From assembly GCA_015178975.1 (NCBI GenBank), contig WHVD01000010.1, forward strand, positions 248,001 to 312,000: a DNA stretch of 64,000 nucleotides, read 5' to 3'. Position 1 is the first letter of the stretch. The number at the start of each line of letters is the position of its first letter. The position numbers were made by a program, and so were the translations under genes. This stretch comes from Hysterangium stoloniferum. Its lineage: Eukaryota > Basidiomycota > Agaricomycetes > Hysterangiales > Hysterangiaceae. The notes below the pieces were generated by a model that had not been told where the DNA came from, did no database searches, and worked only from the letters and a program-made list of their open reading frames with translations. This document shows positions 1-64,000 of the stretch, piece after piece.

Positions 1-1957
1 TTCAAGTTCACCATTTAAGAATGCAGAAGAGATATCTATATTCTCAAGTTCCATATCCTCTAGTGCAGCCAAAGCTAGGACAGCATGTAAGGTGGCCCAT
101 TTGGCAGTAGGAGCAAAGGTATCAATGAAGTCAAATCCTGGTCGCTGTGCATAGCCTTTTGCAACAAGATGAGCTTTGAACTTGTCAATTGAGCCATCCT
201 TTTTATGCTTTATTACAAATACCCAACGAGAGCCAATAGCTTTATGACCCTCAGGTAATTTGGCAAGATGAAAGGTGCCATTTTCAAGCAAAGATTGCAT
301 TTCAGCATATGCAGCATCATACCACCTGTCAGCATCAGGACTTTGCAAGGCCTCTTTGAGAGTTCTAGGTCCATTATCATTGGCACTAGCCTTTTAAGCA
401 AACTCAAAGGCTTCATCTACAGAGATATAAAGATCTCCTTCACTGGCACCTAGAGTTTCCTCCTCAGACTCAACTGGTTGAGGAGAAGCTGGTACAGAAT
501 CCTCTGCTTCATCACTGGACTCAACTACAGGAGTAGATTCTCTATAGTTGTGGATGTTAGGAGGGTAACACTTAAAAGGAACTCTGTTTCTGGGTGGATT
601 TCAATGTGGTTGAGGGGGAGGACTTAGTGAATGCTCAGAAGCAGAATCAGAGCTAGAGCCTGAATCAGGAGCCAAAGCATTACCCTGATCATCTCCCACC
701 TGATTAGGATGAGCTCCCACCTGAGTAGACCCAGAGGGGCCAGGAATAAACATATGTATCAATGAATTGTTGGGTATCAGGAAAAACCTTAGGAATAGGT
801 GGTGGTGGTGGTGGTGATGGTGTAGTCTGCTTAGATAGTCCTGGCAAAACTCTCTCATCAAAAACAGCATTATTACTGACTATAATCTTTTTAGTCAGTG
901 GATTGTAAAATAACCAACCCTTATAATCTGAAGGATATCCAATGAAGACACACTTTTGTGTGTGAGAGCCAAGTCCAATATGTTGATCCTTCTGCACATG
1001 TACATAGGCAGTGGATCCAAATACTCTAAGATTTGACACATCTGGTTTTCTGCCATGGAAAGCAGTATAGGGAACAGAGTGCTTAAGAGCAGTAGTAGGG
1101 GAGCTATTGTGTGCATAAGTAATTGCAAGAACAACATGTCCCCAAAAAGAAGGAGGAAGGTGGGATTCAGTCAAAATTGAAGTAGACCCTTCTTCCAGTG
1201 TCCTATTAAAGCGCTGAGCCTCACCATTCTGGTGAGGCTCACTTCAGACAGTATGCTGCCAACTAATGCCAGCATTTTCAAGGAAGGTATCAAATTCCTT
1301 TGATATTTACTCTCCACCCTTATCATCCCTAAAAATCTTAATCGTCTGACCAAGTTTATTTTCAACACTGGCCTTGTATATCTTAAAAGCCTCAAATACA
1401 TCACTCTTGTTTTTGAGTAATGCAGTCATAGCATAGTGTGAGGCATCATCAATGAAGGTTACCCAGTAGCAAAACCCTTCCAGAGTTTGTGTAGGTAATG
1501 GACCATGAACATCACTGTGAATGAGTGCAAGTGGTTTAGTATAGCATGTTGTTGCCATCTTATTAACCACTCTGTTCTGTTTACCAGCTAAGCAAGGTTC
1601 ACAAATAGGATCTGGAGCAATCTGAGAGTCAATCTGAATACCAGTGACCAAGTCCCCTGTCATAAGCTTCTTTACATCAGCATGATTCAGATGACTAGAA
1701 CGATGATGCCAAAGTGTAGAGTCTAATGGACAGGTTGTAACGAGACCAGCATAATCTGTCATAGGTACTGTAATTCCATCTAAATAGGCCTTATTCTGTT
1801 CATTAACTGTTGCAGTGAAATGCAAAACCTTCTTCTGATAGAAAGACATGGTGGAACCAAAGATAGAAACATGGTAGTTCTTCTTCTTTGTCAAGTACAA
1901 GGCTGAGAGTAGATTGCTTGTGAGATGGGGAACATGAAGAACTATTTGAAATTCCAA
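1..1957 (-). pseudogene. copia pol: GAG-pre-integrase, integrase, partial RT
   Basis: The GAG-pre-integrase segment (about 1560-1760) has the pattern LWHHRSSHLN and the zinc-binding CEPCLAGK. The integrase core shows the DDE residues in SDVHGPLP, RDDKGGE and QNGEAQR. The integrase C-terminus (704-1170) has HGRKPDVSNLRVFGS. A proline-rich linker follows, then RT with GSRWVFVIKHKKDGS, LVAKGYAQ and SSAFLNGELE at the window edge. Damage: TAA just after GGE (near 1305), TGA before SEPHQ (near 1242) and TAA near 393 before the RT domain. It cannot make a complete Pol protein. RT is cut by the window, so its catalytic YVDD motif is not visible. Confidence 0.9.
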
Positions 1958-11746: not shown

Positions 11747-14700
11747 CTACAATGTTGTTAATAGTCCATGTCTATCCATTTGCAGGATCAAAGCCCGAAT
11801 GTGTTCAGAAGGAATATCCTCCATGAAATGTATTATGAAGGATAGGATCTGAGCAACTTCCAGAATGGTATGGCTTACACAAGCTACCAAGATCATCATG
11901 CACCACAAACTAGAGGATACAAACACTTACTAGATTTCAAGAGGATTTCAATCAGCGTACCACGATGTTGCAGAGGTGATTCAGGTAAATATAAGTGGCA
12001 CAATGCAGACAGGACTGTCCGCAGCTTGATATTGGTAAAGTGACCTGCAAGACGGTGAAAGGAGTCAATGCTGCAAAGAATTAAAGCTTACCATATTGAG
12101 CAAAAGCTACAAACAATTTGCCACCAGTTGATACAACTTCGTCATTGTCGGCATCAACCAGGGATATACAGTGATGTTCTAAGTTGCACCCAATAATAAT
12201 TCCACGAAGGCAATCTTTGAAAACATTGGTGAGGGGAAGGTGTTGACTTGCATGTCAAGGGACACACCATGGACGGCTAGCTGAACGAGGAGGTCAACAA
12301 CTTGTGTTTGAGTGTGTAAATATGTGTCTTCCAACCACGAAACGATGTCGGGAATGACCCCCGCAATGGCGGCTCGAAATTCGGCTGTGGTCAAATGTCA
12401 GCTGGATTCCCATCCCATTCTAACAAATCGCACCTTGCTCTGAAAGCTTCACCAGGGCCGATAATGTGTCTGATCGGACGAACTCATCAGAGTCCTTCAA
12501 CAGTGGAACAATGTAGGGAATAACACCCCCAATCGCGGCTCGAAATTCGACTATGGTCAAACGTCAGCTGGATTTCCATCCCATTCTGACACACCGCACC
12601 TTGCTCTGAAAGCTCTACTAGGGCCGATACTGTGTCTGATCGAACGAACACGTCAGAGTCCTTCAACAGTGGAACAATGTCGGGAATGACATCCGCAATG
12701 GCGGCTCGAAATTCGACTGTGGTCAAATGTCAGCTGGATTTCCATGCCATTCGGACACACCGCACCTTGCTCTGAAAGCTTCAACAGGACTGATACTGTG
12801 TCTAATCGAACGAACTCGTCAGATTCCTTCAACAGTGCAACAATGTCTGGAATGACACCCGCGATGGCGGCTCGAAATTCAGCTGTGGTCAAATGTCAGC
12901 TGGATTCCCATCCCATTATTACACACCGCACGTTGCTCTGAAAACTTCGCCATGGCCCATACTGTCCTTAATTGAACGAAAGAGTCAGAGTCCTTCAACA
13001 GTGGAACAATGTCGGGAATGACACCAGCAATGGCGGCTCGAAATTCGGCTGTGGTCAAATCTCAGCCGGATTCCCATCCCATTATCACACACCGCACCTT
13101 GCTCTGAAACCTTCGCCAGGGCTGATACTGCGTTTGATTTAAGGAAGTTGTCAGAGTCCTTCAACAATGCAACAATGTCGGGAATGACACCCGCAATGGC
13201 GGCTCGAAATTCGGCTGTGGTCAACTGTCAGCTAGATTCCCATCCCATTATGACACACCGCACCCTGCTGTGAAAACTTTGCCAGGGGCCATACTGCGCT
13301 TGATCGAAGGAAGTTGTCAGAGTCCTTCAACATTGCAACAATGTCGGGAATGACACCCGCAATGGCCGCTCGAAATTCGGCTGTATTCGAATGTCAGCTG
13401 GATTCCCATCCCATTCTGACACCGCACCTTGCTCTGAAAGCTCCGCCAGGGCTGATACTGTGTCTGATCGAACGCCCTCGTCAAAGTCCTTCAACAGTGG
13501 AACAATGTCGGGAATGACACCCGCAATGGCCGCTCGAAATTCGGCTGTGGTCAAATGTCAACTGGATTCTCATCCCATTCTGACACATCGCACCTTGCTC
13601 TGAAAGCGTCAACAAAGCCGATACTGTGCATGATCGAACGAACTCGTCAGAGTCCTTTAACAGTGGAAAAATGTCGGGAATGACACCAGCAATGGCGGCT
13701 CGAAACTCAGCTGTAGTCAAATGTTAGCCAGATTCCCATCCCATTATCACACACCGTACCTTGCTGTGAAAACTTCGCCAGGGCCGATACTGCGTTTGAT
13801 CGAAGGAACTCGTCAGAGCTCTTCAACAGTGCAACAATTTCGGGAATGACACCCGCAATGGCGGCTCGAAATGCGGCTGTGGTCAAATGTCAGCGGGATT
13901 CACATCCCTTTATCACACACCGCACCTTGCTCTGAAAACCTCGCCAGGGCCCATACTCCACGTGATCGAAGGAAGTTCTCAGAGTCCTTCAACAATGCAA
14001 CAATGTCGGGAATGACACCCGCAATGGCCGCTCGAAATTCGGCTGTGATCAAATATCAGCTGGATTCCCATCCCATTATCACACACCGCACCTTTCTCTG
14101 AAAAATTCTGTAGGGCAGATGCTGCGTTTGATTGAACAAAGTAGCTAGTGCCCTTCAACAATGCGAAAAGGTCTGGAATAGCCCCCGCAATGGCGGGTCG
14201 AAATTCGGCTGTGGTCAAATGTCAGCTGGATTCCCATCCCATTATCACACATCGCACTTTGCTCTGAAAGCTTCACCAGGGCCGATACCACTTTCGATAG
14301 AACGAACTCGTCGAAGTCCTTCAACAGTGGAACAATGTCGGGAATAACCCCCGCAATGGCGGCTCGAAATTCGACTGTGGTCAAATGTCAGTTGGATTCC
14401 CATCTCATTCTGACACACCGCACCTTGCTCTGAAAGCTTCAACAGGGCCGATACTGTCTCTGATCGAACGAACTCGTCAGAGTCCTTCAACAGTGAAATA
14501 ATGTCGGGAACGACACCCGCAATGGCGGCTCGAAATGGGGCTGTGGTCAAATATCAGCAGGATTCCCATCCCATTCTCACAAACCGCACCTTGCTCTGAA
14601 AGCTTCACCAGGGCCAATACTGTGCTTGATCGAAGAAAGTTGTCAGAGTCCTTCAACAATGCAACAATATCGGGAATGACACGGGTAATGGCGGTTCTAA

Positions 14701-17700
14701 ACCCGTCTGCAAATCCATGAATTATGGCAGTTTAGGAGGAATTGGCGTACGTACCAAACACATGTACAGCAGTGATCACTTTTACCAGAGCGAACTTTCC
14801 TCTTGCCGCTCTGAGGTTGAATTTGGGCAAGGGAAGGGAAAAATTGCGCGCTTTAAAGTGGCATGGAAGTTAATGAAAGAATAATACATGACCTCTCCTC
14901 ACGCACATGACATTTTTATGCATTGAATGATCTTGATGTCCGCATGACGAGAGATACTATCAGTACTATGGAAGAGATCTAGAGCTGACGATAGACGGGC
15001 CGGCAAAGGGGGGAAGTGTGGTATATTGGGCGCATTTGCTAGATAATCGCAATATGAATGAGAATGAAATGGCAAACAAGAGAGGATGGGGAGGCTTCGA
15101 AGTGAGATTGAAGGTGGCTCACTCAGCATTGGTCCTGTTTTCTCAGAAAAACCTACAGCCGCACGTATGTGCGCCCGGACGAGAGGGAGCATCTCCCCTA
15201 TGGAGACTTAAGACAATCCTTTACCAAGATTTATTGGATCACCTTGCTCTGAAAACGTGGCCAGGGCCGACACTGCGTTTGATCGAACAAAGTAACCAGA
15301 GTCCTTCAACATTGCAACAATGTCGGGAATGATAACCCCAAGAGCGGCCCGACATTCGGCTGTGGTCAAATGTCAGCTGGATTCCCATCCCATTATCACA
15401 CACCGCACTTTGCTCTGAAAACTTCGCCAGGGCCGATAATGTGTCTGATCGTACGAACATGTGAGAGTCCCCCAGCAGTGAAACGATGTCGGGAATGACC
15501 CCCGTAATGGCAGCTCGAAATTCGACTGTGATCAAATGTAGCTGGATTCCTATCCCATTAATCACAAACCGCACCTTGTTCTGAAAACTTCGCCAGGGCA
15601 GATATTATGCTTAATCGAACGTTATGGTTAGAGTCCTTCAACAGTAGAACAATGTCGGGGATAGCACACGCGATGGCGGCTCGAAATTCGGCTGTGGTCA
15701 AAAGTCAGCTAGATTCTCATCCCCTTAATCACACACCGCACCGTGCTCTGAAAAGTTCTCCAGGGCCGATACTGTGCTTGATCGAACGAACTCGTCAGAG
15801 TCCTTCAACAGTAGAACAATATCGGGAATGGCACACGGAATGGCCGGTCGAAATTCGGCTGTGATCAAATGTCAGCTATTTTCCCATCCCAATCCCATTC
15901 TCACACCCCGCACCTTGCTCTGAAAACTTCCCCAGGGCCGATACTGTGCGTGATCGAACGAACTCGTCAGAGTCCTTCAACAATGCAACACACCCTGGAA
16001 TGACACCCGCAATGGCGGCTCGAAATTCAGCTGTGATTAAATGTCAGCTGGATTCCCATCCCATTATCACACACACCGCACCTTGCTCTGAAAGCTTCGC
16101 CAGGGTCGATAGTGTGTGTGATCGAACGAACATGTCCGAGCCCTCCAACAGTGCAACAATATCTGGAATGACGTCCGCAATGGCGGCTCGAAATTCAGCT
16201 TGTGGTCATATGTCAGCTGGATTCCCATCCCATTAATCACACACCGCACCTTGCTGTGAAAGCTTCGCCAGGGCCGATACGGCACTTGATCGAACGAACT
16301 CGTCAGAGTCCTTCAACAGTGCAACAATGTCGGAAATGACACCTGCAATGGCGGCTCTAAGTTCGGCTTGGTCAAATGTCAGCTGGATTTTCATCCCATT
16401 ATCACACACCACACCTTGCTCTGAAAACTTCCCCATGGCAGATACCGCGTTTGATTGAACGGAGTAGCTACGGTCCTTCAACAGTAGAACGATATCGGGA
16501 ATGACATCCGCAATGGCGGCTCGAAATTCGACTGTGGTCAAATGTCAGCTGGATTCCCATCCTATTCTGACCCACGCACCTTGCTCAGAAAGCTTCAACA
16601 AGGCCGATACTGTGTCTGATCGAACGAACTCTTCAGAGTCCTTCAACAGTGGAACAATGTCGGGAACGACACCCGCAATGGCGGCTCGAAATGCGGCTGT
16701 GGTCAAATGTCAGCTGGATTGCCATCCCATTATCACACACTGCACCTTGCTCTGAAAACTTCTCCGTGGCCGATAACGCGATTGATTGAACGGAGAAACT
16801 AGAGTCCTTCAACATTGCAACAATGTCGGGAATGGCACACGCAATGGCGGCTTGAAATTCAACTGTGGTCAAATATCAGCTGGATTCCCATCCCATTCTG
16901 ACACACTGCACCTTGCTCTGAAAGCTTCAACAGGGCCAATACTGTGTCTGATCGAACGAACTCGTCAGAGTCCTTCAACAGTGAAATAATGTCGGGAACG
17001 ACACCCGCAATGGCGGCTCGACATTCGGCTATGATCAAATGTCAGCTGGATTCTCATCCCCTTTATCACATACCACACCTTCTTCTGAAAACTTCGCCAG
17101 GGCCAATACTGTGCTTAATCGAACGTTTTTGTTAGAGTCCTTCAATAGTAGAACAATGTCGGGCATGGCACACACGATGGCCGGTCGAAATTCGGCTGTG
17201 ATCAAATGTTAGTTGGATTCCCATCCTATTATCACACCACACCTTGTTCTGAAAACTTCTCCATAGCCGATACTGCGTTTGATCGAACGAGCTTGTCGGA
17301 GTCCTTCAACAGTGCAACAATGCCTGGAATGGCACCAACGATGCCAGTTGGGTATCTAGCTTAACACCGGCCCATATCATATTGTAGCCCTTCTCCACAT
17401 GGCATTTTCTTACCACACTCCAATAGCAATCGTTCTAGAGAATAATCTGCTTTTTCAACCACTTTCTTTATCCACTCTTGTTCTTTCCCTGTTGTGATAA
17501 TACACTAGCTGTATATGTTTTGAGTCATAGTAAACGCATAGTTTACCTGCCATTAAACCCTTTTCTTTGAGCATTCTCCGGCAATCCGCTGCTCATCAAT
17601 CAGTTTCTTTGCCCTAGCCGAGGAAAACCCCCTACTAAGATGCCAAAAAGCCAATATTAACCCTTCGCAGATTGCACGTAAGCCCTCCTTTTGTGAAGAT

Positions 17701-19297
17701 GTTCCATCGATAACCGCCGTTATCAATGTCCTTCGCTCGTATGGTGCTGCACCCATAGTGGCCACCACTTGGATCTGTGGACCTGTCGACACCTCCAGGC
17801 TGTCGTCATCCATGTTCACCCAAATACCAATATGAACTGCCAACCCCAACGTCTTCACGCAAGGATCCAGATTGACCAACCGATGTAATGGTCTCCCGAC
17901 ATGTAGGAGTGTTTTGAAGGGAGTAAGGTACTCTTTGTCCATGAGTTTGTCTGTTGGCGGCGATAGTACTCGTGACATTGCAAGGAGAGAAACTTCTGCA
18001 AGCGCTGGATCACGTACAGTGACGGCGCCCGCGGTGAGGTGAAAGCAGTCCTCCAAAATCTTGCACAACTTCTCTGTGACGACTCGATGGCACAAGGCAA
18101 TCCGCAACTGTTCAGATTGTTTAGCACCTGCTATAGCCCTAAGTGCCTCGTTAACTGCCTCCTCCGATGTGGATTTTACAATCACCCATGCCAGGACATC
18201 AGCTTCAAGTTCGGCCCGTTGAGGCTTGCGTTGCGTTTCGACCAAGAACCCAGAAAGGCTTTTAAACCATTCAGAAGTTCCGAATGTATACGTCCTTTTC
18301 GGTGATAAAGGCCCACAGTAGTCTGAAGTGGACGTCTCATACTTTGCGCTTGCAGCGACGACGGGGAAAACCCGTGACATTGTTGTCTGAAAGGGACAAG
18401 CGGGGGAAAACAAGGGCAAAACCGTGCCGAGGATATATAGCACGATTGCGACCATGGTCAAAAAAAGCATAAGAATGCCCAAAGCTACGCTGTTATTCCA
18501 TGTAAATAAGACGAGACCTGCAAAGAAAAGGAAGAGAGCTAGTTGAATCAAAAGCGGTATTCCAGTAACAATTGATTCGAGACGCCATTGCTGTGCTCTC
18601 CTAACACGAAGGAGACGTTGGCATGCATCACTTGAGCGACTCCCAAGGGATACAGGATTATACTTCGCTAGCCATTCCCTTGCAAGTACAGCACAAAGCG
18701 CACTGAAGAGAGTCAGACAGAGACTAGTGAACCACAAATAGTTGACAATAAGGGATGATTTGGAGACTTCAAAAGGCTGAGAGGTGGTTACAGCGAAATG
18801 ATTTTGAAGCCCCCGAAGGATTTCCTGAACAGGATCTACCTGCAACTCCTTCCTACTTTCGATCAGGAACGCGGTAAGAATCGCTCCAAACAAACCCGCC
18901 TGAAAAACTGTGGATTAATGGAATATCTACAAAGAAACGAAATCGCATTCAACATACAAATATGAGAAGCTCATCGACACCCACTTGCAATGAGTCGGCA
19001 AGTTCTTTATCCTCTTTTTCCGTTTCCTTCAGATATAATGACCATATGGTTGAATGTGATTGAAGGTGCTTGCTATAGGGGTTATCGTCCTCGCTTTCTA
19101 AACCATTATCGCCATTGGGTGCCGCCTCGGTTAGGCTTGAGGGAACCTTGGTATACGAAGGCTGACGGTTGATCGTTGCTTGTTCCGTTGCTTGCCTGCC
19201 TCAGTTTAAAATAAGTGTAAACTCTGATTTAAATACCTGACACAAACGGTATCTGTGATTCGGCGCAGCTAAGGTCTTGTGCATACTGCGAAGACAT
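11747..19297 (-). CDS. DUF6535 membrane domain plus HEAT-repeat array protein
   Basis: Function unknown; predicted membrane-anchored repeat protein. Proposed exon 1 starts at 19297 (MSSQYAQDL), exon 2 (19199-18958) holds the DUF6535 lead-in IWSLYLKETEKEDKELADSL, and exon 3 (18899 to about 17553) has four hydrophobic segments (near AGLFGAILTAFL, NYLWFTSLCLTLFSAL, GIPLLIQLALFLFFAGLVLF and ILMLFLTMVAIVLYIL). An exon at about 17410-17490 (KEQEWIKKVVEKADYSLERL) joins in phase to the first repeat exon. About 28 repeat exons follow, then C-terminal exons (GHFTNIKLRTVLSAL; ending QMDRHGLLTTL, stop at 11747). Oddities: intron 1 would be only 37 nt; exon 3 reaches a stop at 17553 in a frame different from the MLKEKGLMAGKEQ frame, so there is a 1-nt frameshift or an unseen intron; and a 0.5-kb non-repeat gap (14713-15235) could separate two genes. 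DUF6535 is confident, gene unity is inference. Confidence 0.7.
12232..14712 (-). repeat. HEAT exon-intron tandem array, downstream block
   Basis: About fifteen units with the same 117-nt exon plus 49-nt intron organisation and the same phase. Variation between units is concentrated in the inter-helix stretch and the second helix (LLKDSDEFVRSDTVSAL, LLKESDEFVRLDTVSVL, LLKDFDEFVLSKVVSAL, LLKGTSYFVQSNAASAL), while the first helix is nearly constant. The last unit (WLEDTYLHTQTQVVDLL) is the most diverged, as expected for a capping repeat, and leads into unique C-terminal exons at 12185-11747. Confidence 0.93.
14713..15235 (-). other. non-repeat gap inside the HEAT array
   Basis: Interrupts the repeats. 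On the minus strand a 48-nt intron (GTACGTACGCC to GGATTTGCAG) joins, in phase 1, a short exon (KFALVKVITAVHVF) to the first unit of the downstream block. The upstream block would end about 15212 if the last donor is not used (stop after INLGKGLS). Two readings fit: a longer linker inside one gene, or the 3' end of one gene and promoter/start of a second. No start codon is visible in frame with the short exon. Confidence 0.5.
15236..17345 (-). repeat. HEAT exon-intron tandem array, upstream block
   Basis: About thirteen tandem units of about 166-170 bp. Each unit is one 117-nt exon (39 codons, both borders phase 1) and one intron of about 49 nt starting GTGCGGTGTG and ending GACCACAG. The peptide unit is of the form EFRAAIAGVIPDIVALLKDS then DEFVRSDTVSALAKLSEQ, a two-helix HEAT-like repeat. 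Introns are as well conserved as exons, so whole units have been duplicated or homogenised. The first unit (about 17270-17345) is the most diverged and lacks the usual exon start. Confidence 0.93.
17553..18899 (-). CDS. DUF6535 domain exon
   Basis: A 446-residue open exon following a clear TTTTCAG acceptor at 18900. The start (AGLFGAILTAFLIES), the VNYLWFTSLCLTL segment and REWLAKYNPVS are the classic layout of the fungal DUF6535 N-terminal membrane domain. Two further adjacent hydrophobic helices follow. The rest (about residues 200-440) is soluble and alpha-helical in look (EEAVNEALRAIAGAKQSEQL), consistent with diverged HEAT-like helices leading into the array. The domain is common in Agaricomycete genomes and has no assigned biochemical function that I know of. 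Confidence 0.88.
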   Translation of the reverse strand, partial: AGLFGAILTAFLIESRKELQVDPVQEILRGLQNHFAVTTSQPFEVSKSSLIVNYLWFTSLCLTLFSALCAVLAREWLAKYNPVSLGSRSSDACQRLLRVRRAQQWRLESIVTGIPLLIQLALFLFFAGLVLFTWNNSVALGILMLFLTMVAIVLYILGTVLPLFSPACPFQTTMSRVFPVVAASAKYETSTSDYCGPLSPKRTYTFGTSEWFKSLSGFLVETQRKPQRAELEADVLAWVIVKSTSEEAVNEALRAIAGAKQSEQLRIALCHRVVTEKLCKILEDCFHLTAGAVTVRDPALAEVSLLAMSRVLSPPTDKLMDKEYLTPFKTLLHVGRPLHRLVNLDPCVKTLGLAVHIGIWVNMDDDSLEVSTGPQIQVVATMGAAPYERRTLITAVIDGTSSQKEGLRAICEGLILAFWHLSRGFSSARAKKLIDEQRIAGECSKKRV

Positions 19298-21736: not shown

Positions 21737-23525
21737 CTAGTACTTTGTATGGCCTCCCTTAGCCTTTATTACAGCATCAAGCCTTCTAGGAATACTTTCT
21801 ATAAGTTTCTGACACTTCTGAGGCTCAATCTTTGGCCATTCCACTTCCACCCTCTCCCATAACTCCCAAACTCCTTTTGGTGGTGAAGGATATTTTTGTA
21901 GTTGTTTCTTCAGGTGATTCCAAAGATGTTCTATGGGATTGAGGTCAGGAGACTGTGCTGGCCAGCCTAATACCTGAATCTGATTTTCAGAAAACCATTT
22001 TTGTGCCATCTTGGATGTATGCTTTGGGTCATTATCTTGCTGGAAAATGGCCTCATCTTCTGGAATCTCCAAATCTCCAATGCTCTGGGACAAATACTGA
22101 TCCAGGATCTCCACATATTGTGCAGAATCCATCCATCCTTCAATCTCTGCAAGCCTTCCCACCCCATTCCAACCCATACAGCCCCAGACCATGATATTTC
22201 CACCCATGCTTGACAGTAGGTTGGGTTGTCCTATCAGAAAGCGGTTCTCCAGTTTTCTTCCACACATATTGATGTCCATCTGACCCAATCCTATTGACTT
22301 TGGTCTCATCAGACCACAATACCCTCTTCCAATCATCCACTGTCCAGTTTTGGTATTTGAGGGCAAAACTTAACCTGGCCTTCTATGTTGAGCCTTGAGC
22401 AAGGGTGTTAGGATACACGTACAGGGCGGGTCTCCAGAGAAACCCGCGGGATATCCGGTAGGACTTGGCTTCAGCTTATAGGCTGCACCCTTGCGAGATC
22501 GTGTTGTCCAATTTCAAACAGGTGGACGGGAATCCTGGGGAGTCCAGGTGGGGTTCATGGGTCATGGGTCATAGGTCGGAGGTCATGGGTCGTGAGTCAA
22601 GATAGGTGAGAGAGATAAATGCACTGGAGCCCATGGGCTCCAACTAGCATGAGCAGTGTGATTTGAGTAGGGGTTTAGAGTGGAAAGTGTATTAGATTAC
22701 TGAGGGGAATCTAAGCTAATTTTCTGACTGGATTGTATGTACAACATCTACCAGTTGAAATAGACCTTGGAGTGAATGACATACCAAATCAAGTAATGAT
22801 GAAACGAAACTAACAAAACATAAAATGGGAATAGTAAACACCAAGTTTGGTGTTAGGAATGGGACAGAACGGAGCAGAGTCCGAATCGTGATAAATCATA
22901 ACCCATAACGGGAAATGGAGTGGGAGCAGAGTCCTAATCATGACAGGTCATTTGATTAAAATGGGAATGGGGCTCAGTTAGAGCGATGACAGGATTCTGA
23001 GCAGGGTCCAGTGACTGATGCGTGGGATGAAGACGGACATAGACAGAGAACGGAGTCCAGGGGAAGTCTGGTGACTGATATGTGATGTAATGAGGTTGAA
23101 CGTAAACAAGTCTGACAAACGGAGTCTGGGCGGGAATTCCTGTAAACTGACAATTGGTGCATCTAGGGCATGGGTGCATACGAGTTAGTGCCCGGAGTCC
23201 AGCGGGATTTTCTGGTCATAACAAAGGGCCTTTTTGCTTTGACTACAGCTTTGAAACCATGCTGTTTCAAGGTCCTCCTGACTGTGTTGGGTAAGACATG
23301 ATATTGATTGATGGAATTGATGTAGTGTGTGGCCTGGACAGCATTATCTAGCTTGCCAGAGGTGATTTGATGCATGATCCTCCTTTGGTCAGTAGGAGAA
23401 AGCTTGGAAGGACATCCTCCTTTCAGGTTCTCTTTTTCTATGTCCATCTCCTGACCAATTCTACTGATAGTAGACTTGCTAAGACCTGTTATACATAGAG
23501 GCCACATTCCTTTTGGAGAGTCCAT
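21737..23525 (-). pseudogene. Tc1-type DD34E transposase, split and frameshifted
   Basis: The N-terminal helix-turn-helix part (23229-23525: GLSKSTISRIGQEMDI, PNTVRRTLKQHGFKAVVKAK) is separated from the catalytic part (21737-22400) by a solo LTR. The catalytic triad residues are visible: D in LWSDETKVNRIG, D in FQQDNDPKHTS, E in SPDLNPIEHLW, i.e. DD34E. The first D lies in a different frame from the other two, so there are frameshifts independent of the LTR. Not functional. Confidence 0.93.
22406..23223 (-). repeat. solo LTR, family A copy 6, in Tc1 transposase
   Basis: TGTTAGGATA to TGGTCATAACA, exact duplication AAGGG (22401-22405, 23224-23228). Inserted in the transposase between the DNA-binding and catalytic parts. 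818 bp. Confidence 0.95.
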
Positions 23526-23816: not shown

Positions 23817-24642
23817 TGTTACGACCGGACAATGCCGCCGGACTCCGGGCACTAACCCGTACGCCCCCACGCACTACAAGCACCAATCGTCTGTTTATAG
23901 GATTTCCCACCCAGACTCCGTTATTTCAAGACTCGTTACGTTCGACCTCATTACGACACATATCAGTCACCGGAATTCCCCCGGACTCCGTCTCTGTCTA
24001 TGTCCGTCTTCATCCCACGCATCAGTCACCGGTCCCCGCTTAGAATCCCATTACCGCTCTAATCGAGCCCCGTTCCCGTTTTAGTCAAATGACCTGTCAC
24101 GATTTAGGATCCACTCCCGCTCCGTTTCCCGTTATGGGTTATGCTTTGTCACGATTCGGACTCCGCTCCGTTCTGTTCCATTCCTAACACCAATTTGGTG
24201 TTTACTATTCCCGTTTCATGTTTTGTTAGTTTCATTTCGCCATTACTGGATTTGGTATGTCATTCACTCCGTGGTCTATATAAACTGGCAGATGTTGTAC
24301 ATACAATCCAGTCAGAAAATTAGCTTAGATTCCCCCCAGTAATCTAATAATATTTTCCGCTCTAAAAACCTTACTCGATTCACATCGCTCGCACTAGTCG
24401 GAGCCCACGGGCTCCGGCGCATCTATCTCTCTCAACCAACTCGACTCACGACCCACGACCCACGACCCCCGACTTACGACCTACGACCCACAAACCCCGC
24501 CCAGACTCCCCGGGATCCCCGTCCGTCCGTTTGAAATTGGACAACACGATCTAGCGAGGGCGCAGCCTATAAGCTGAAGCCAAGTCCTACCGGATATCCC
24601 GTGGGTTTCTCCGGAAACCCGGCCTGTGTGTGTATCCTAACA
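23817..24642 (+). repeat. solo LTR, family A copy 7, in Tc1 right TIR
   Basis: TGTTACGACC to GTATCCTAACA, exact duplication GTATG (23812-23816, 24643-24647). CpG-rich (for example TTACGACCGGAC, GCCGCCGGACTCCGGGC), so apparently young. Complete promoter TCTATATAAACTGG and initiation block GATGTTGTACATACAATCC. 826 bp. Confidence 0.95.
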
Positions 24643-24749: not shown

Positions 24750-25589
24750 TGTTACGACCGGACAATCCTGCCGGACTCCGGGCACTAACCTGTACACCCC
24801 CACGCGCTACAAGCACCAATCGTCTGTTTATAGGATTTCCCGCCCAGACTCCATTACGTCAAGACTCATTACGTTCGACCTCATTACGACACATATCAGC
24901 TACCGGACTTCCCCCGGACTCCGTCTCTGTCTATGTCCATCTTCGTCCCACGCATCAGTCACCGGTCCCCACTTAGAATCCCGTCACCGCTCTAATCGAG
25001 CCCCGTTCCCGTTTTAGTCAAATGACCTGTCACGATTTAGGATCCACTCCCGCTCCATTTCCCGTTATGGGTTATGCTTTGTCACAATTCAGACTCCGCT
25101 CCGTTCCGTTCCGTTCCTAACACCAATTTGGTGTTTACTATTCCCGTTTCATGTTTTGTTAGTTTTGTTTCGCCATTACTGGATTTTGGTATGTCATTCA
25201 CTCCATGGTCTATATAAACTGGCAGATGTTGTACATACAATCCAGTCAGAAAATTAGCTTAGATTCCCCCCAGTAATCTAATAACATTTTCTGCTCTAAA
25301 ACCTTACTTAATTCACACCGCTCGCACTAGTCGGAGCCCACGGGCTCCGGCACATCTATCTCTCTCAACCAACTCAACTCACGACCCACGACCTCCAACT
25401 TATGACTCATGACCCCCGACTTATGATCTATGACCCACGAACCCCGCCCAGACTCCCCGGGATCCCCGTCGGTCCGTTTGAAATTGGACAACACGATCTA
25501 GCGAGGGTGCAGCCTATAAGCTGAAACCAAGTTCTACCGGATATCCCACGGGTTTCCCCGGAAACCCGGCCTGTGTGTGTATCCTAACA
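24750..25589 (+). repeat. solo LTR, family A copy 8, in last bases of Tc1
   Basis: TGTTACGACC to GTATCCTAACA, exact duplication GGAAG (24745-24749, 25590-25594). It interrupts the terminal 11 bases of the Tc1 inverted repeat. CpG-rich and very close to copy 7. 840 bp. Confidence 0.95.
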
Positions 25590-26868
25590 GGAAGCCACTG
25601 TATATGCATCCATGCCCTATATGCACCAATTGTCAGTTCACCAGAATTCCCACCTGGACTCCATACGTCAGACTTGTCCACGCTCAACTTCGTTACGTCA
25701 TGTATCAGTCACTGGAATACCTGCCAGACTCCATCCCTGTCTATGTCTGACCTCATCCCACGTGTCAGTCACTAGACCCCACTTGGAAAACCCGTCATCA
25801 CTCTAACTGAGCCCTGTTCCTGTTTTAGTCATTGACCTGTCACAATTTGGACTCCACTCCCGCTCCGTTTCCTGTTATGGTTTATGATTTGTCACAATTC
25901 GGACTCCACTCTGTTCCATCCCATTCCTAACACCAATTTGGTGTTTACTATTCTCATTTTATGTTTTGCTAGTTCTGTTTCATTATTACTGGATTTGGTA
26001 TGTCATTCATTCCATGCTCTACATATATAGTCTGGCAGATGTTGTACATACAATCCAGTCAGAAAATCGGCTTAGATTCCCCCCACTAATCTAATACCTT
26101 TTCTGCTCTAAACTTCTCCTTGAATTACACTGCTCCCACTAGTCAGAGCCCATGGGCTCCGATGCATCTATCTCTTTTATTTATCTCGACTCCCCGACCT
26201 CTCGACCCATGACCTCTGACCTACAAACCCTCGACCCACGAACCCTGCCCAGACTCCCTGGGTTTCCCGTCTGCCTATTTGAAATTGGACAACACGATCT
26301 TGTGAGGGTGCAGCCCATAAGCTGAAGCCAAGTCCTACTGGATTCCCCATGGGTTTCTCCGGAAACCTGCCATGTACATATCCTAACACAGGTCATTTGA
26401 CCATAACGGGAATGGGGCTCAGTTAGAGAGCTGTTGGGTATTCTGAGAGGAGTCCAGTGACTGGTATGTGGGACAGGGTCAGAGATAGACAGATGCAGGT
26501 TCCGGTGGGTATTCTGGTGACTGATACTGTACATGAAGTGATGAAGGTTGAGCATGGGCAGGTCTGATGTCCGGAGTCTGGTGGGTATTCTGGTAATCGA
26601 TAACTGGTGCATGTAGGGTGTGGGTGCATATAAGTTAGTGCCTGGAGTCTGGTGGGTTTTCCAGTCGTAACACCACACCTCTGCAGTTTTCCTGTTGATT
26701 TCAAAATTTGATGCCCATGCCCTTGACTGTTGCCCCTGAACTTTCACACACCATTGCCCACAGTTTGGACCATCACGATTACCATTTTCATGCCAATTCA
26801 CTCACTGTTGTTGCTACTGCATTTTTCCTGTTGCTGCTACATTTTGCACTGCTGCCACATCTTTCCAC

Positions 26869-33647: not shown

Positions 33648-34474
33648 TGTTATGACCAGAATTCCCACCGGACTCCAGGCACTAACTTATATGCACCCGT
33701 GCCCTATACACACCAATTGTCAGTTTACCGGAATACCTGCCGGACTCCATACATCAGACTTGTCTACATTTGACTTCGTTACATTGTGTTTCAGTCACCA
33801 GAATAACTGCCAGACTCCGTCCCTGTCTATGTCCGACCTTGTCCCATGCATCAGTCACTGGACCCCGCTCAGAAAACCTGTCATCCCTCTAACTGAGCCC
33901 CATTCCCATTTTAGTCAAATGACCTGTCACAATTTGGACTCCACTCCCGCTCCATTTCTTGTTATGGTTTATGATTTGTCACAATTTGGACTCTGCTCCG
34001 TTCCATCCCATTCTAACACCAAATTTGGTGTTTACTATTCTCATTTTATGTTTTGCTAGTTCCATTTAATTATTACTGGATTTGGTATGTCATTCATTCC
34101 ACGGTCTATTTAGTCTGGTAGATGTTGTACATACAATTTAGTCAGAAAATCGGCTTAGATTCCCCCCAGTAATCTAATGCATTTTCCGCCCTAAACTCCT
34201 ACTTGAATTACACTGCTCACACTAGTTGGAGCCCACAGGCTCCGGCGCATCTATGTACCTCTCTTACCTATCTCAACTCACGACCCCTCAACCCACGACC
34301 TCCGACCTATGACCCCTCAACCCATGAACCCTGCCCAGACTCCCCAGGATTCCTGTCTGCCTGTCTGAAATTGGACAACACGATCTCGTGAGGGTGCAGC
34401 CTATAAGCTGAAGCCAAGTCCTACCGGATATTCTGTGGGTTTCTCCGGAGACCCACCATGTACATACCCTAACA
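33648..34474 (+). repeat. solo LTR, family A copy 12
   Basis: TGTTATGACC to ATACCCTAACA, exact duplication GTGTT (33643-33647, 34475-34479). 827 bp with standard promoter and 3' hairpins. The frame at 33643-34059 is not a gene. Confidence 0.94.
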
Positions 34475-35268: not shown

Positions 35269-35433
35269 AGTGTCAGAGGCACCAGTGTCAGAGGCACCAG
35301 TGTCAGAGGCACCAGTGTCAGAGGCACCAGTGTCAGAGGCACCAGTGTCAGAGGCACCAGTGTCAGAGGCACCAGTGTCAGAGGCACCAGTGTCAGAGGC
35401 ACCAGTGTCAGAGGCACCAGTGTCAGAGGCACC
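35269..35433. repeat. 15-bp minisatellite, 11 perfect copies
   Basis: Eleven identical tandem copies of AGTGTCAGAGGCACC (165 bp). The absence of any mismatch indicates very recent expansion or active homogenisation. The unit is open in several frames on both strands (SEAPV, RGTSV, VPLTL repeats); none has gene context. Confidence 0.97.
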
Positions 35434-36503
35434 AAATGGCAGGCTGCTGGAAAGGTGAATACTGCATCCAGGGTCCTGAAATAATGGTTCCTAACACCTG
35501 AGGATTCTCCTAAAATATATTCATCACCTATCTTTGCTCCAGAACCCAAATCCTTTCTGAAAATACACTCACTTTACCTGGCTTGCCAGGAAGGAATGTT
35601 AGGAATGCATGCACGGACTGCAGCTCCCAAACATTGAAAAACCATCTGCAAAGGGGAGATGTCAAATTAATTGACTGTAAAGTCCAACAGTGAGTAGTTA
35701 TCCAAGGAAGTTGATCAGAGACAAAGAAGAATAATAGCTAGGGGTCCCAATCATCATGGAAACACCAGGATGTACCAGAAAGGCAAATAATATACAATGA
35801 TAGACACTGGTTCTACCAGGAGCATAAAGAGTCACATTGATTACCACTTTGTGTATGAAGAATACCAACTTGTAAAGTATGGTAAGAATTGTATTGACTG
35901 ACTTAGTACAACACATATTACTCAGAAGGAAGGGGAATAAAGCAAAGTAATAGTAAGTTGCTTGAAGTTTGAGACATCATTAGTTAGAGTTAAGGAATTG
36001 ACCTTTATGGTTCAATTCCTCACAAGGCTACATTTCAAACAAATAAAGATATGCCATGAAGAATTTGACAGGAGAGAAAAGAAGAGACTTGAGGTTGAGG
36101 AGTGGAGCAGATGCAACAGAGAGATGTAATGAGAACTCAAAGTTGATGATAAAGTCCTAAGTGATGACTCTTGACTTTTTGCAGTGTGATATCAACGACA
36201 ATGTAGAGTGTAGTCATGTGTGAACGCTGTCTGAAACAACTGAGATGGCACCCAAACCTCAACTTGCACTTAAGTTGCATGTTGGGGTTTTTGGATAAAA
36301 ATGTCTGTCTTCTCAGCATCTAGTGTGCCCACAGGTATACATACAGCTTCGAACTAATGTCGAACTAATGTAAGACAATATATTCAAAGAATATCTTAAT
36401 TAAAACACATCAATTTATAGGAAAAATTAGAATAAAATGTTAACTGGGCAAGAGAAAAAATAAGTGTAGAAATAACAGAAGATCACACCTACTCCCCTAC
36501 AGG
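35434..36503. other. no gene seen
   Basis: No defensible coding or repeat structure. Sequence immediately before 36504 does not match the permease locus, so the duplication breakpoint is about 36500. Confidence 0.5.
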
Positions 36504-59096: not shown

Positions 59097-61414
59097 ATGC
59101 CAGCAACCAAAGCTATCGGAATTGATCTCGGAACAACTTATTCGTAAAGCCCCTTCTATGTATTTGATTTTGTTTTGTTTGCTGACGTCCATTTTATCTA
59201 GTTGCGTTGGCGTCTGGCAAAATGATCGTGTCGAAATCATCGCTAATGATCAGGGGAACCGCACTACCCCGTCGTATGTCTCATTCTCCGATACTGAACG
59301 ACTTATCGGAGACGCTGCAAAAAACCAGATTGCCATGAATCCTCACAACACGTAAGTAATGTCGCATATTGACTTGGTCTTCGCGATGTTGACAAAGGGT
59401 CTTGCAGTGTTTTTGATGCCAAGCGACTTATTGGTCGCAACTTCCACGATGCGGATGTCCAGTCTGACATGAAGCACTTCCCATTCAAAGTGGTCAATAG
59501 AGGTGACAAGCCTTCTGTCCAGATCGAGTACCGTGGGGAGACGAAGCAGTTTGTGAGTGTATTTACTTTCTTTTCTCCGTGTAAATTACTGATTTTATTT
59601 TTATTTTATAGACACCTGAGGAAATCTCCTCTATGATCCTCACTAAGATGAAAGAAACGGCCGAGGCCTATCTGGGAACGAGTGTCACTGATGCCGTTGT
59701 TACCGTCCCAGCTTATTTCAACGATTCCCAGCGACAAGCTACCAAAGACGCTGGTGTCATCGCCGGTCTGAACGTCCTTCGAATCATCAACGAACCTACA
59801 GCAGCTGCTATCGCCTACGGTCTTGACAAGAAAGTGGCCGGAGAACGCAATGTCTTGATCTTCGACTTGGGAGGGGGGACATTTGATGTTTCGCTGCTCA
59901 CTATTGATGATGGTATTTTCGAGGTGAAGGCTACCGCTGGAAATACTCATCTAGGTGGAGAGGATTTCGACAACCGTCTCGTTGATCATTTCGTCCAAGA
60001 ATTCAAGAGAAAGAACAAGAAAGGTGCGTTGATCGTATTTTTGGAGCGTCATTCTTCGTTGCTTATATTGTTTCTCATAGACATCAGTGATAACGCTAGG
60101 GCTCTTCGCCGTCTCCGTACCGCCTGCGAGCGCGCCAAGCGCACACTTTCATCCGCCGCTCAGACTAGCATCGAAATCGACTCTTTGTACGAGGGAATCG
60201 ACTTCTATACCTCCCTGACACGTGCACGCTTCGAAGAACTCTGCAACGACCTCTTCCGTAGCACCCTGGAGCCTGTTGAGAAAGTCCTTCGAGATGCCAA
60301 GATCGACAAGTCATCTGTGCACGAGATCGTCCTCGTTGGTGGCTCGACTCGTATCCCTCATATTATCAAGCTAGTTTCTGATTGTTTCAACGGCAAAGAG
60401 CCTAACCGTTCCATCAATCCTGACGAAGCTGTGGCTTACGGTGCTGCAGTTCAGGCAGCCATCCTTACGGGAGATACGTCTGAAAAGACTCAGGATGTCC
60501 TTCTGATTGATATCGCCCCATTAAGCACTGGGTGAGCTTTATTTTTATCCAACAACTCTTCAGCAACCGTACTGAGTTGTTTTGTAGTATCGAGACCGCC
60601 GGCGGTGTCATGACAGCCCTCATCCCGCGTGGAACAACCGTCCCGACCCAAAAATCGCAGACGTTCTCCACGTACGCCGACAATCAACCAAGTGTTTTGG
60701 TGAAGGTTTACGAAGGGGAGCGCTCCTTCACAAAGGATAACAATCTGCTTGGCAAGTTCGAACTTGCCGGGATCCCACCTGCGCCTCGTGGCGTTCCACA
60801 AATTGAAGTCTCGTTCGAGGTTGATGCGAATGGTATACTCAACGTGTCCGCTTCCGAAACGGCTTCTGGAAAGTCCAACCGTATCACCATCACGAATGAT
60901 AAGGGCCGTCTGTCGCAGGAGGAGATCAATCGCATGGTGGCGGAGGCCGAGAAATACAAAGGTAAGGAATATATCTTTGCTTAGCTTTCTATTTGCTAAC
61001 CGACATCTATCATTCTTTAGCTGAAGATGACGCTGAAGCATCTCGCATAGTCGCCAAAAATGGCCTTGAATCTTATGCTTACAATTTACGCAACTCACTA
61101 AGCGACGAGAAAGTTGCGAGCGCCATGGACCCGACTGACAAGTCGAAGTTGGATGCAGCAGTTTCTGAGATCATAAGATGGATTGACGCCTCCCATGCGG
61201 CTTCGAAGGAAGAATACGAGGTGCAACAGAAGGAACTCGAAGGGATTGCGAACCCAATAATGCAGAAGCTTTACGCTGCTGGTAGTGAGCGCCAGGCACC
61301 CTTTACTGCTGGCAGCAACGAGGGAGGTCCCAGTGTTGAAGAGGTGAAGTTTTTCTCTCATTTTGGCCTTTGGAATGATATGCTGACGGTTTTTATTCTG
61401 TCCAGGTTGATTAA
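59097..61414 (+). CDS. HSP70: cytosolic Hsp70 (SSA type), complete
   Basis: ATP-driven chaperone of cytosol/nucleus. Eight exons: 59097-59143, 59202-59351, 59408-59552, 59612-60023, 60081-60531, 60588-60961, 61021-61343, 61406-61414, introns 55-63 nt, GT-AG. Start [16 protein letters not shown]. ATPase motifs all present: [52 protein letters not shown]. Substrate domain [18 protein letters not shown] and [20 protein letters not shown]. The tail GPSVEE joins over the last intron to VD, giving the cytosolic EEVD end. The glycine-rich lid tail is short (about 640 residues in all). Promoter: step-type HSE array and TATA. Followed by a diverged tandem paralogue. Confidence 0.96.
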
Positions 61415-62546: not shown

Positions 62547-64000
62547 ATGGCACGGTCAGCCACCAAAGCTATCGGAATTGATCTCGGGACCATTTATTCG
62601 TAAGGCTCCTACTATATCTTAAATCTTGATTAATTTACTAACGTCCCCTTCTTCTAGTTGTGTTGGCGTGTGGCAAAATGACCATGTCGAAATCATTGCT
62701 AATGATCAGGGGAACCGCACTACCCCGTCATATGTGTCATTCTCCGAAACTGAACGACTTATCGGAGACGCTGCAAAAGACCAGATTGCAACGAATCCTC
62801 ACAACACGTAAGTGACCTCATACTCTTATTTGGTCTTTGCGATACTCAAAAAGGTTTTGCAGTATTTTTAATGTCAAGCGACTTATTGGTCGCAACTTCC
62901 AGCATGCGAATGTCCAGTCTGACATGAGGTACTTCCCATTCAAAGTCATCAACAAACGTGGCAAGCCTTCTATCAAGATTGAGCACCGTTATGAGACGAA
63001 GCAGCTTGTGAGTTTATTTACTTTCTCTTTCGCTTCTTAGTTACTGAATTTATTTTATTTTATAGATACCCGAGGAAATCTCCTCTATGATCCTCGCAAA
63101 ATTGAAAGAAACAGCCGAGGCTTATCTCGGAACGACCGTCACCGATGCTGTCGTCACGGTTCCAGTTTATTTCAACAACTACCAGCGACAAGCTACCAAA
63201 GACGCTGCTACTATCGCCGGCCTGAACGTCCTTCGAATCATAAACGAACCTACAGCAGCCGCTATCGCCTACGGTCTCGACAAGGAAGTGACTAGGGAAT
63301 GCAATGTCTTAATTTTCGACCTGGGAGGATGGTCATTCGATGTTTCACTGCTCACTATTGAAGACCACATTTTCCGGGTGAAGGCTACTGCTGGAAATAC
63401 TCATCTAGGTGGAGAGGATTTCGACAACCGTCTCGTCGATCACTTTGTCAATGAATTCAGAACGAAGAATATGATAGGTTTGTTAATCTCTCTCTCTCTC
63501 TTTTGGGAGGAGGGGGGGGCATTCCTCGTTTGCTTATACTGTTTCTCATAGACATCAGCAGTAATGCTAGAGCTCTTCGCCGTCTCCGCAAAGCCTGCGA
63601 GTACGCCAAACGCACGCTTTCATCCGCCACTCAAGCTTCCGTCGAAATTGACTCTCTGCACGAAGGAATTGATTTCTATACCTCCCTCACACGTCCGCGC
63701 TTCGAAGAACTCTGCGACGACCTCTTCCGCAGAACCTTGGAGCCCGTGGAGAAAGTCCTTCGAGTTGCCAAGGTCGACAGGTCCTCTATACACGAAATCA
63801 TCCTCGTTGGTGGCTCAACTCGTATCCCTCGCATTATCAAGCTTGTCTCCGAATATTTCAATGGCAAGGAGCCGAACCGTTCCATCAACCCTGACGAGGC
63901 TGTAGCTTATGGTGCTGCCGTTCAGGCTGCTATACTGGCGGGAGATAAGTCTGAAAGGATTCAGGATATCCTTCTAATGGATATTGTGCCAAGCAGCATC
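62547..64000 (+). CDS. Hsp70 paralogue with altered ATP-binding motifs, cut by window end
   Basis: Tandem copy of the gene at 59097. Exons 62547-62599, 62658-62807, 62863-63007, 63066-63477, 63552 to window end, with introns at the same positions as the first copy. No stop or frameshift in what is visible (about 480 codons). Changes at conserved places: DLGTTYS is [15 protein letters not shown] is DLGGWSFD (phosphate-binding loop), PAYFNDSQ is PVYFNNYQ. These suggest loss or strong change of ATPase activity, although the frame is kept. Could be a young pseudogene without stops, or an ATPase-poor paralogue. The substrate-binding domain is beyond the window. Confidence 0.88.

What the first reader, a model, noticed from the sequence alone, without database searches (positions are those of the whole stretch)
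12232..17345. HEAT-repeat gene grown by duplicating exon-plus-intron units
About 28 tandem units, each a 117-nt exon (39 codons, phase 1 at both ends) and a 49-nt intron. Because exons are symmetric, any gain or loss of a unit keeps the frame. Introns are as similar to each other as exons, so units are duplicated or gene-converted as DNA, not selected only as protein. Seen directly; the claim that it lets the protein change length between strains is inference.
Basis: partly seen in the sequence, partly recalled or inferred. Interest (0 to 1): 0.75.

Follow-up and report, generated by a model that had tools for sequence, protein, structure and literature searches.

The report
Fungal HEAT gene built from exon–intron units
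This is an intact-looking fungal gene whose protein has 28 similar building blocks, each coded by its own small exon, and it belongs to a large gene family in the same genome that gains, loses and mixes these blocks in the DNA, perhaps to change what the protein binds.

Summary
On the minus strand lies one 36-exon gene (19297..11747, 1777 aa, one terminal stop): a DUF6535 head, 28 HEAT repeats, a tail. All 28 repeat exons are 117 nt, phase 1 at both ends, stop-free in the coding frame; 26 and 25 of 28 have stops in the other forward frames. Inter-unit introns are 47–55 nt except one of 536 nt. A head search scored 40 places in this genome, the window included. Eighteen genes hold 545 units: 24–48 each, 16 in a decayed copy. 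Units cluster by gene (169 label changes; shuffles at least 367); exact repeats of 150–610 nt occur in 8 of 19 arrays; sister genes with heads 1.4% and 2.7% apart differ by three and two units. But the window array shows no recent duplication, and linkage fades within about 100 nt, so exchange seems mostly sub-unit. Family-wide the most variable residues sit at the helix turn and on helix B. Nearest parallels: Tetrahymena 90-bp-exon LRR genes and fungal NLR repeats. A recognition role is inferred; expression and strain variation were not testable.

The parts
11747..19297 (-). whole gene: 36 exons, CDS 5334 nt, 1777 aa, one terminal stop; all introns after exon 3 are phase 1
   Evidence: head and tail exon borders chosen by hand with the help of alignments of paralogues; the spliced protein matches DUF6535 over the full profile 1-177 at 154.9 bits against 112.8 for the open frame alone
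17414..19297 (-). head, exons 1-5 (19297-19237, 19199-18958, 18899-17636, 17588-17547, 17488-17414): DUF6535 (aa 73-236) with about four hydrophobic segments, then linker
12268..17359 (-). array of 28 HEAT units, exons 6-33, each 117 nt, phase 1-1
14707..15242 (-). 536-nt phase-1 intron between units 13 and 14; homologues in 16 of 17 fetched paralogues (two in C212, none in the decayed copy C2_144), 519-541 nt; the unit after it begins in a position-specific way (DAFGTAI type)
17243..17359 (-). first unit, position-specific N-cap (ARYPTG/ARFPTG type)
   Evidence: the 16 first-unit exons in the tree need 1 label change
12268..12384 (-). last unit, C-cap with divergent helix B (..TQTQVVDLLVQLAVH)
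11747..12214 (-). tail exons 34-36 (12214-12092, 12044-11931, 11883-11747), conserved in paralogues; no Pfam match has its best stretch here

Best explanation
A functional fungal gene for a membrane-anchored alpha-solenoid: a DUF6535 head with about four hydrophobic segments carries 28 HEAT repeats, one per symmetric 117-nt exon. It belongs to a family with about 40 scored head copies in the genome. Shown: the intact spliced frame in the window gene, whole-unit differences in copy number between paralogues, clustering of exons and of introns by gene, position-specific first exons and a long intron that stays as a landmark. Indicated: exchange tracts mostly shorter than a unit. Inferred: phase symmetry makes any unit gain or loss harmless to the frame, so unequal exchange and gene conversion keep re-dealing units while selection holds the hydrophobic core and lets (or drives) the helix-turn and helix-B surface vary. 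Inferred, weaker: the solenoid is a binding surface for changing partners, such as nonself or parasite molecules, working like the repeat domains of fungal NLRs.
For: Gene model and frame. Family. Homogenisation: nearest neighbour in the same gene for 252 of 481 units against mean 35, maximum 51 in 200 label shuffles; tree label changes 169 against at least 367 in 100 shuffles. First-unit exons group (1 change for 16) while the introns next to them do not (14 for 16), as expected if exchange breaks inside units, though 49-nt introns give a weak tree. Excess r2 falls from 0.084 at 1-5 nt to 0.007 at 111-165 nt. C2_1475/C200 (heads 1.4% apart) have 27 and 24 units in scrambled order; C2_1405/C32 (2.7%) have 25 and 27, the last six colinear at 0.95-1.00 with a shift of two. 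C212 carries two long introns 3.9% apart, so a block was doubled. Selection contrast between genes: head exon 3 pN/pS 0.45 (136 pairs, 17 genes), array units pN 0.187 and pS 0.193. Most variable residues family-wide 24, 23, 28, 22, then 35, 36, 32, 34, at the turn and along helix B of the predicted two-helix unit.
Against: No transcript, protein or strain data. pN exceeds pS in only 4 of 18 genes, so gene-wide positive selection is not shown; in 68 independent close pairs pN/pS is 0.77 and the intron rate equals pN. The excess of replacement changes at codons 22, 23, 24, 28 over introns (odds 2.06, p 2e-4) uses sites picked partly on the same data, and all changes in codons with several changes were counted as replacement. 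Third positions of codons 23 and 28 vary as much as or more than the first two. In the window gene codon 24 is not among the most variable. The four-gamete share is flat with distance (0.76-0.83), so it shows recurrent mutation rather than exchange; only the decay of linkage speaks for exchange. The window array shows no recent duplication and its own units have their nearest neighbour in the gene in 14 of 26 cases only. Function is inference.
Confidence: 0.72

Rival explanations
1. An ordinary intron-rich HEAT scaffold gene whose units look alike only because protein fold and splice signals constrain them; no ongoing exchange.
For: Window units average 65% amino-acid identity and carry no exact repeat of 150 nt; array introns are a little more conserved between genes (0.137) than head introns (0.171), as splicing constraint would give.
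Against: Introns cluster by gene, exact repeats up to 610 nt cross exons and introns in other arrays, unit number and order differ between genes with nearly identical heads.
Confidence: 0.13
2. A decayed or non-expressed repeat array (satellite-like) with a fossil frame.
For: No expression data; one copy, C2_144, is decayed (17 stops in its head exon frame; 7 flagged of 16 units); 10 of 18 genes, C2_144 among them, have at least one flagged unit.
Against: Window: 0 of 28 exons with a stop, no exon indel, full 1777-aa frame. Family: 533 of 545 exons are 117 nt and 541 of 545 stop-free, though borders were refined within 8 nt with a preference for 117; unrefined borders are AG..GT in 473 of 527. 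Head exon 3 pN/pS 0.45. Whole frames of the paralogues were not built.
Confidence: 0.05
3. Unit counts are assembly artefacts (collapsed or expanded arrays).
For: Near-identical arrays are hard to assemble (PMC12222747 passages); 8 of 19 arrays have exact repeats of 150-610 nt.
Against: The window array and 10 others of 19 have no exact repeat of 150 nt, so reads could be placed.
Confidence: 0.05
4. Same gene and dynamics, but the variable surface serves intracellular scaffolding or trafficking, not recognition of nonself.
For: Best solved relatives by sequence of four joined window units are PP2A A subunits, importin alpha and designed Arm/alpha-repeat proteins; the head has no solved relative and DUF6535 no known function.
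Against: Scaffold HEAT proteins seldom form families of about 40 copies with shuffled units (general knowledge, not searched).
Confidence: 0.25

Closest known systems
Tetrahymena group III LRR genes with 90-bp exon arrays (PMC6564038; outline, passages, sections 17 and 27 read)
   Same: Large solenoid-repeat gene family in which each repeat unit is an exon of one exact length plus a similar intron, symmetric phase, variable exon number, units scrambled within and between genes.
   Different: LRR not HEAT, 90 nt not 117, phase 2 not 1, longer introns (about 257 bp in T. thermophila), a ciliate; here a DUF6535 head, position-specific end units and a landmark long intron.
Fungal NLRs with highly conserved repeats, HNWD/HIC (PMC1805685, PMC4986451, PMC12222747; passages read)
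   Same: Fungal multigene family, repeats in concerted evolution, repeat-number variation, variable positions on a binding surface.
   Different: No NACHT/NB-ARC match in the window protein; membrane head instead; HEAT; every repeat is bounded by introns; most unit pairs are below 85% identity in the 18 genes.
Human LPA kringle IV-2 VNTR (PMC11462820, PMC4378929; start of abstracts in a search listing only)
   Same: Protein length set by copy number of a DNA unit that holds exon and intron.
   Different: Single human gene, 5.6-kb unit, little sequence variation reported between units.
HEAT repeats of PP2A A subunit and alpha-repeat designs
   Same: Two-helix repeat with a similar core pattern.
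   Different: Those natural repeats are more divergent, the designs artificial (recalled); exon structure not compared.

Membership tests
HEAT repeat proteins (PF02985/PF13646) | profile match above curated cut-off | tested here: met
   full spliced protein: HEAT_2 230.8 bits (cut-off 27.7), HEAT 206.4 (23.5)
HEAT repeat proteins (PF02985/PF13646) | helix-turn-helix unit | tested here: met
   AlphaFold2 model of one unit, mean pLDDT 88.9, helices at codons 3-19 and 23-38; the stacked array was not modelled
DUF6535 family (PF20153) | profile match above curated cut-off over full length | tested here: met
   154.9 bits against 23.9, positions 1-177 of 177
Fungal NLR with HIC repeats | NACHT or NB-ARC domain | tested here: not met
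   none among the 24 Pfam families at E<=0.001 for the window protein
Fungal NLR with HIC repeats | repeats over 85% identical | tested here: not met
   pairs at 85% or more: window 3 of 378; best of 18 genes, C157, 175 of 561; array C179 not counted
Fungal NLR with HIC repeats | concerted evolution of repeats within a gene | tested here: met
   for the window 14 of 26 units
Fungal NLR with HIC repeats | exchange of repeats between genes | tested here: inconclusive
   units also match across genes, but exchange was not separated from recent common descent
Fungal NLR with HIC repeats | repeat-number polymorphism among strains | not testable with these tools
   only paralogues of one assembly held
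Fungal NLR with HIC repeats | positive selection at surface codons | tested here: inconclusive
Tetrahymena-type exon-array repeat genes | exons of one exact length, symmetric phase, in tandem with similar introns | tested here: met
   (117 nt, phase 1)
Tetrahymena-type exon-array repeat genes | LRR, 90 nt, phase 2 | tested here: not met

The most novel reading that the evidence does not exclude
A fungal repertoire of membrane-anchored, hypervariable HEAT receptors without any NOD domain, in which the introns serve as the conserved homology that keeps recombination going between units while exons diversify, so that each copy and each strain carries its own length and surface.
Probability: 0.22. 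Interest if true: 0.85.

Novelty: new variant of a known kind. Interest (0 to 1): 0.58.

Why it matters
Concerted evolution of repeat proteins is hard to tell from protein-level constraint when repeats are all coding. Here nearly every repeat carries its own intron of about 49 nt, and the gene carries a single-copy head and tail, so neutral exchange, constraint and diversification can be measured side by side in 545 units. If transcripts and strain data agree, it gives fungi an exon-array system like that of Tetrahymena and a candidate recognition repertoire outside the NLRs.

Tried and rejected
Suspected a frameshift at the head (TAA at 17553): rejected, a 47-nt intron with counterparts in the paralogues lies just before it and shifts the frame. 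Suspected that nonsynonymous change exceeds neutral change overall (first and second positions against fourfold sites): weakened by full counting and close pairs. Suspected intact exon-plus-intron blocks as the main unit of exchange: not borne out by correlations and linkage. Looked for an RNA or reading frame in the 536-nt intron: no Rfam match at gathering scores in the window, stops in all three forward frames. Structure of the DUF6535 exon: mean pLDDT 44.5, not used for a fold search. NCBIfam gave nothing for the head and only sub-cut-off matches for the repeats. Organism: not identified; one paper search by assembly size found nothing. DUF6535 literature: one paper, a table row only. Other searches for print precedents. 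One search timed out and gave nothing.

Rows dropped: of 545 units 515 were clean (117-nt exon, AG/GT, no stop) and 481 of these had a following short intron; (distances), 37-41, 57, 58, 72 use these subsets. Linkage used genes with at least 15 such units. Of the 40 head places listed (the window's included) were taken as genes; array C179 (18 intact units and one broken end unit) was used only for exact repeats. C2_144 was left out of the between-gene counts.
Full report
WHAT IS THERE. The window is part of a 111-Mb genome in 554 contigs (G000:C2:248001-312000). DUF6535 and the short introns point to a mushroom-type fungus (recalled), but the species was not identified. The finding is the middle of one gene on the minus strand. 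I built the gene model by hand from splice sites, helped by alignments of paralogues, and got 36 exons, 5334 coding nt and 1777 aa with a single terminal stop. Exons 1-5 code a head with DUF6535 (Pfam 154.9 bits over the full profile once spliced) and hydrophobic segments near residues 98-116, 151-174, 215-233 and 239-257; one weak further segment lies at 1643-1661, at the end of the array. Exons 6-33 code 28 HEAT repeats. Exons 34-36 code a conserved tail. All introns after exon 3 are phase 1. Only the window gene was modelled whole; the frames of the paralogues were checked for head exon 3 (13 of the 14 scanned were open, C2_144 was not) and unit by unit.

CHECK OF THE UNITS. All 28 exons are 117 nt. 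Of 27 introns between them 17 are 49 nt, 9 others 47-55 nt and one 536 nt. No exon has a stop in the spliced frame; 26 and 25 of 28 have one in the other forward frames. Unspliced, no ORF of 120 aa or more from ATG, GTG or TTG lies in the array. So the frame is kept by selection and the introns are almost surely removed, though no transcript was seen.

FAMILY. A search with the head gave 40 matches (40 of 139 candidates scored), the tail 46 matched pieces (40 of 393 candidates scored), DUF6535 75 matches, some of them pieces of one gene (120 candidates, all scored), and a two-exon stretch of the array 520 matches (a lower bound). Eighteen genes, the window's included, hold 545 units: window 28, C377 29, C157 35, C24 25, C121 32, C2_372 27, C2_1405 25, C32 27, C2_1475 27, C112 35, C200 24, C2_1311 26, C527 24, C1_4289 32, C517 45, C201 48, C212 40, and the decayed C2_144 16. 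Of 545 exons 533 are 117 nt and 4 have a stop (three in C2_144, one in C200). These borders were refined within 8 nt in favour of 117 nt and AG/GT; without refinement 473 of 527 full-length matches are exactly AG..GT and 472 of 527 have no net indel. Thirty of 545 units carry a flag (wrong length, missing AG or GT, or stop): C2_372 9 (five with GC for GT), C2_144 7, C121 3, C527 3, C517 2, C2_1311 2, and one each in C157, C2_1475, C200, C212; the other 8 genes have none.

DNA-LEVEL COPYING. Within genes introns differ by 0.112 on average, less than pN 0.167 and pS 0.194 (pN above intron in 18 of 18 genes). Between genes the array introns differ by 0.137, head introns by 0.171, head exon 3 pS 0.171 and pN 0.077, array pN 0.187 and pS 0.193 (C2_144 left out). 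Units resemble units of their own gene: nearest neighbour in the same gene for 252 of 481, against 35 expected and 51 at most in 200 shuffles; gene-label changes on the tree 169 (exon and intron), 177 (exon), 230 (intron) against at least 367, 370 and 374 in 100 shuffles each. Genes differ: C112 32 of 33 and C157 29 of 32, the window 14 of 26, C2_1405 5 of 23 and C527 4 of 19. Exact repeats of 150 nt or more exist in 8 of 19 arrays examined, the longest 610 nt at a lag of 830 nt, five units, in C157; the window array has none.

GAIN, LOSS AND SHUFFLING. A long intron (519-541 nt) stands once in 16 of 18 genes, twice in C212 (3.9% apart, with 16 units between, so a block was doubled) and is missing from C2_144. 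Unit numbers on both sides of it vary (10-26 before, 11-31 after, C212 aside). Sister genes C2_1405 and C32 (heads 2.7% apart) have 25 and 27 units; 23 align, the last six at 0.95-1.00 with a clean shift of two. C2_1475 and C200 (heads 1.4%, tails 1.9% apart) have 27 and 24; 20 align at 0.87-0.97, hardly above the mean likeness of any two of their units (difference 0.119), and best matches are out of order: the array has been re-dealt while the head barely changed. Linkage between variable sites across units falls from an excess r2 of 0.084 at 1-5 nt to 0.007 at 111-165 nt, and exon distance hardly predicts the distance of the next intron (mean r 0.14). First-unit exons form one group (1 change for 16), but the introns that follow them are spread (14 changes for 16). 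Exchange tracts are therefore probably shorter than one unit. Against this, the four-gamete share is flat with distance (0.76-0.83), which points to much recurrent mutation, and 49-nt introns carry little signal.

WHAT VARIES. Codons 3, 11, 17, 18 and 33 hardly change (pN 0.03-0.07); codons 23, 24 and 28 change most (0.33-0.50). By amino-acid diversity over the 18 genes the order is 24, 23, 28, 22, 35, 36, 32, 34; codons 23, 24 and 28 are among the six most variable in 17, 16 and 13 of 18 genes, codon 22 in 8. In the window gene the order is 28, 23, 34, 16, 29, 22, and codon 24 is lower (0.44). The predicted unit has helices at codons 3-19 and 23-38, so most variation sits at the turn and along helix B (100-degree periodicity p 0.02 for codons 24-36, which I chose; helix A p 0.046). 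That this side faces the ligand in PP2A A and in designed alpha-repeats is recalled, not tested. Diversifying selection is suggested, not proven: codon 24 varies at first and second positions (0.51, 0.45) more than at the third (0.21), but codons 23 and 28 do not show this; pN exceeds pS in 4 of 18 genes; close pairs give pN/pS 0.77.

KNOWN PARALLELS. Tetrahymena LRR genes with tandem exons of exactly 90 bp and phase-2 introns are the nearest known design (PMC6564038: outline, passages, sections 17 and 27). Fungal NLR repeats show concerted evolution, length polymorphism and positive selection (passages of PMC1805685, PMC4986451, PMC12222747); the word intron is found 1, 0 and 0 times in the main texts of these three. 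The only held paper naming DUF6535 has it in a table row. I found no paper on this family in the searches; most subscription journals are not held.

VERDICT. A real gene with a complete frame; observation confirmed, interpretation partly supported. New variant of a known kind. Function as a recognition surface is inference.

Noticed in passing
window 14707-15242 (-) and homologues in 16 of 17 fetched paralogues: A 519-541-nt intron kept inside the array, mean column conservation 0.86 in 18 copies, no Rfam match, stops in all three forward frames of the window copy; role unknown.
   Followed up: partly
G000:C179:618800-625800 (L049): A very uniform array: 18 intact units with 49-nt introns, then a broken unit. 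One search lists no DUF6535 match on this contig; a 483-aa open frame upstream was not searched.
   Followed up: partly
G000:C2:143800-149800 (L029): Best match of the window head (90%) is a decayed copy with 16 units and no long intron.
   Followed up: partly
G000:C2 and C1: Family heads on C2 (near 144, 260, 372, 1316, 1405, 1475 kb of 1501) and C1 (4.13-4.30 of 4.44 Mb) lie toward contig ends; subtelomeric placement not tested.
   Followed up: no
window 1307-1957 (-): Copia-type retroelement open frame (gag_pre-integrs); neighbouring frames in 704-2406 not scanned.
   Followed up: no
window 21737-22366 (-): DDE_3 transposase stretch.
   Followed up: no
window 59633-60535 and 63087-63551 (+): Two neighbouring HSP70 stretches, perhaps a tandem pair.
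   Followed up: no
window 35269-35434: Perfect 15-bp tandem repeat, 11 copies.
   Followed up: no
window 24442-24499, 25375-25436, 26184-26241, 34272-34332: Scattered short tandem repeats of CGACCCA type, perhaps one dispersed element.
   Followed up: no
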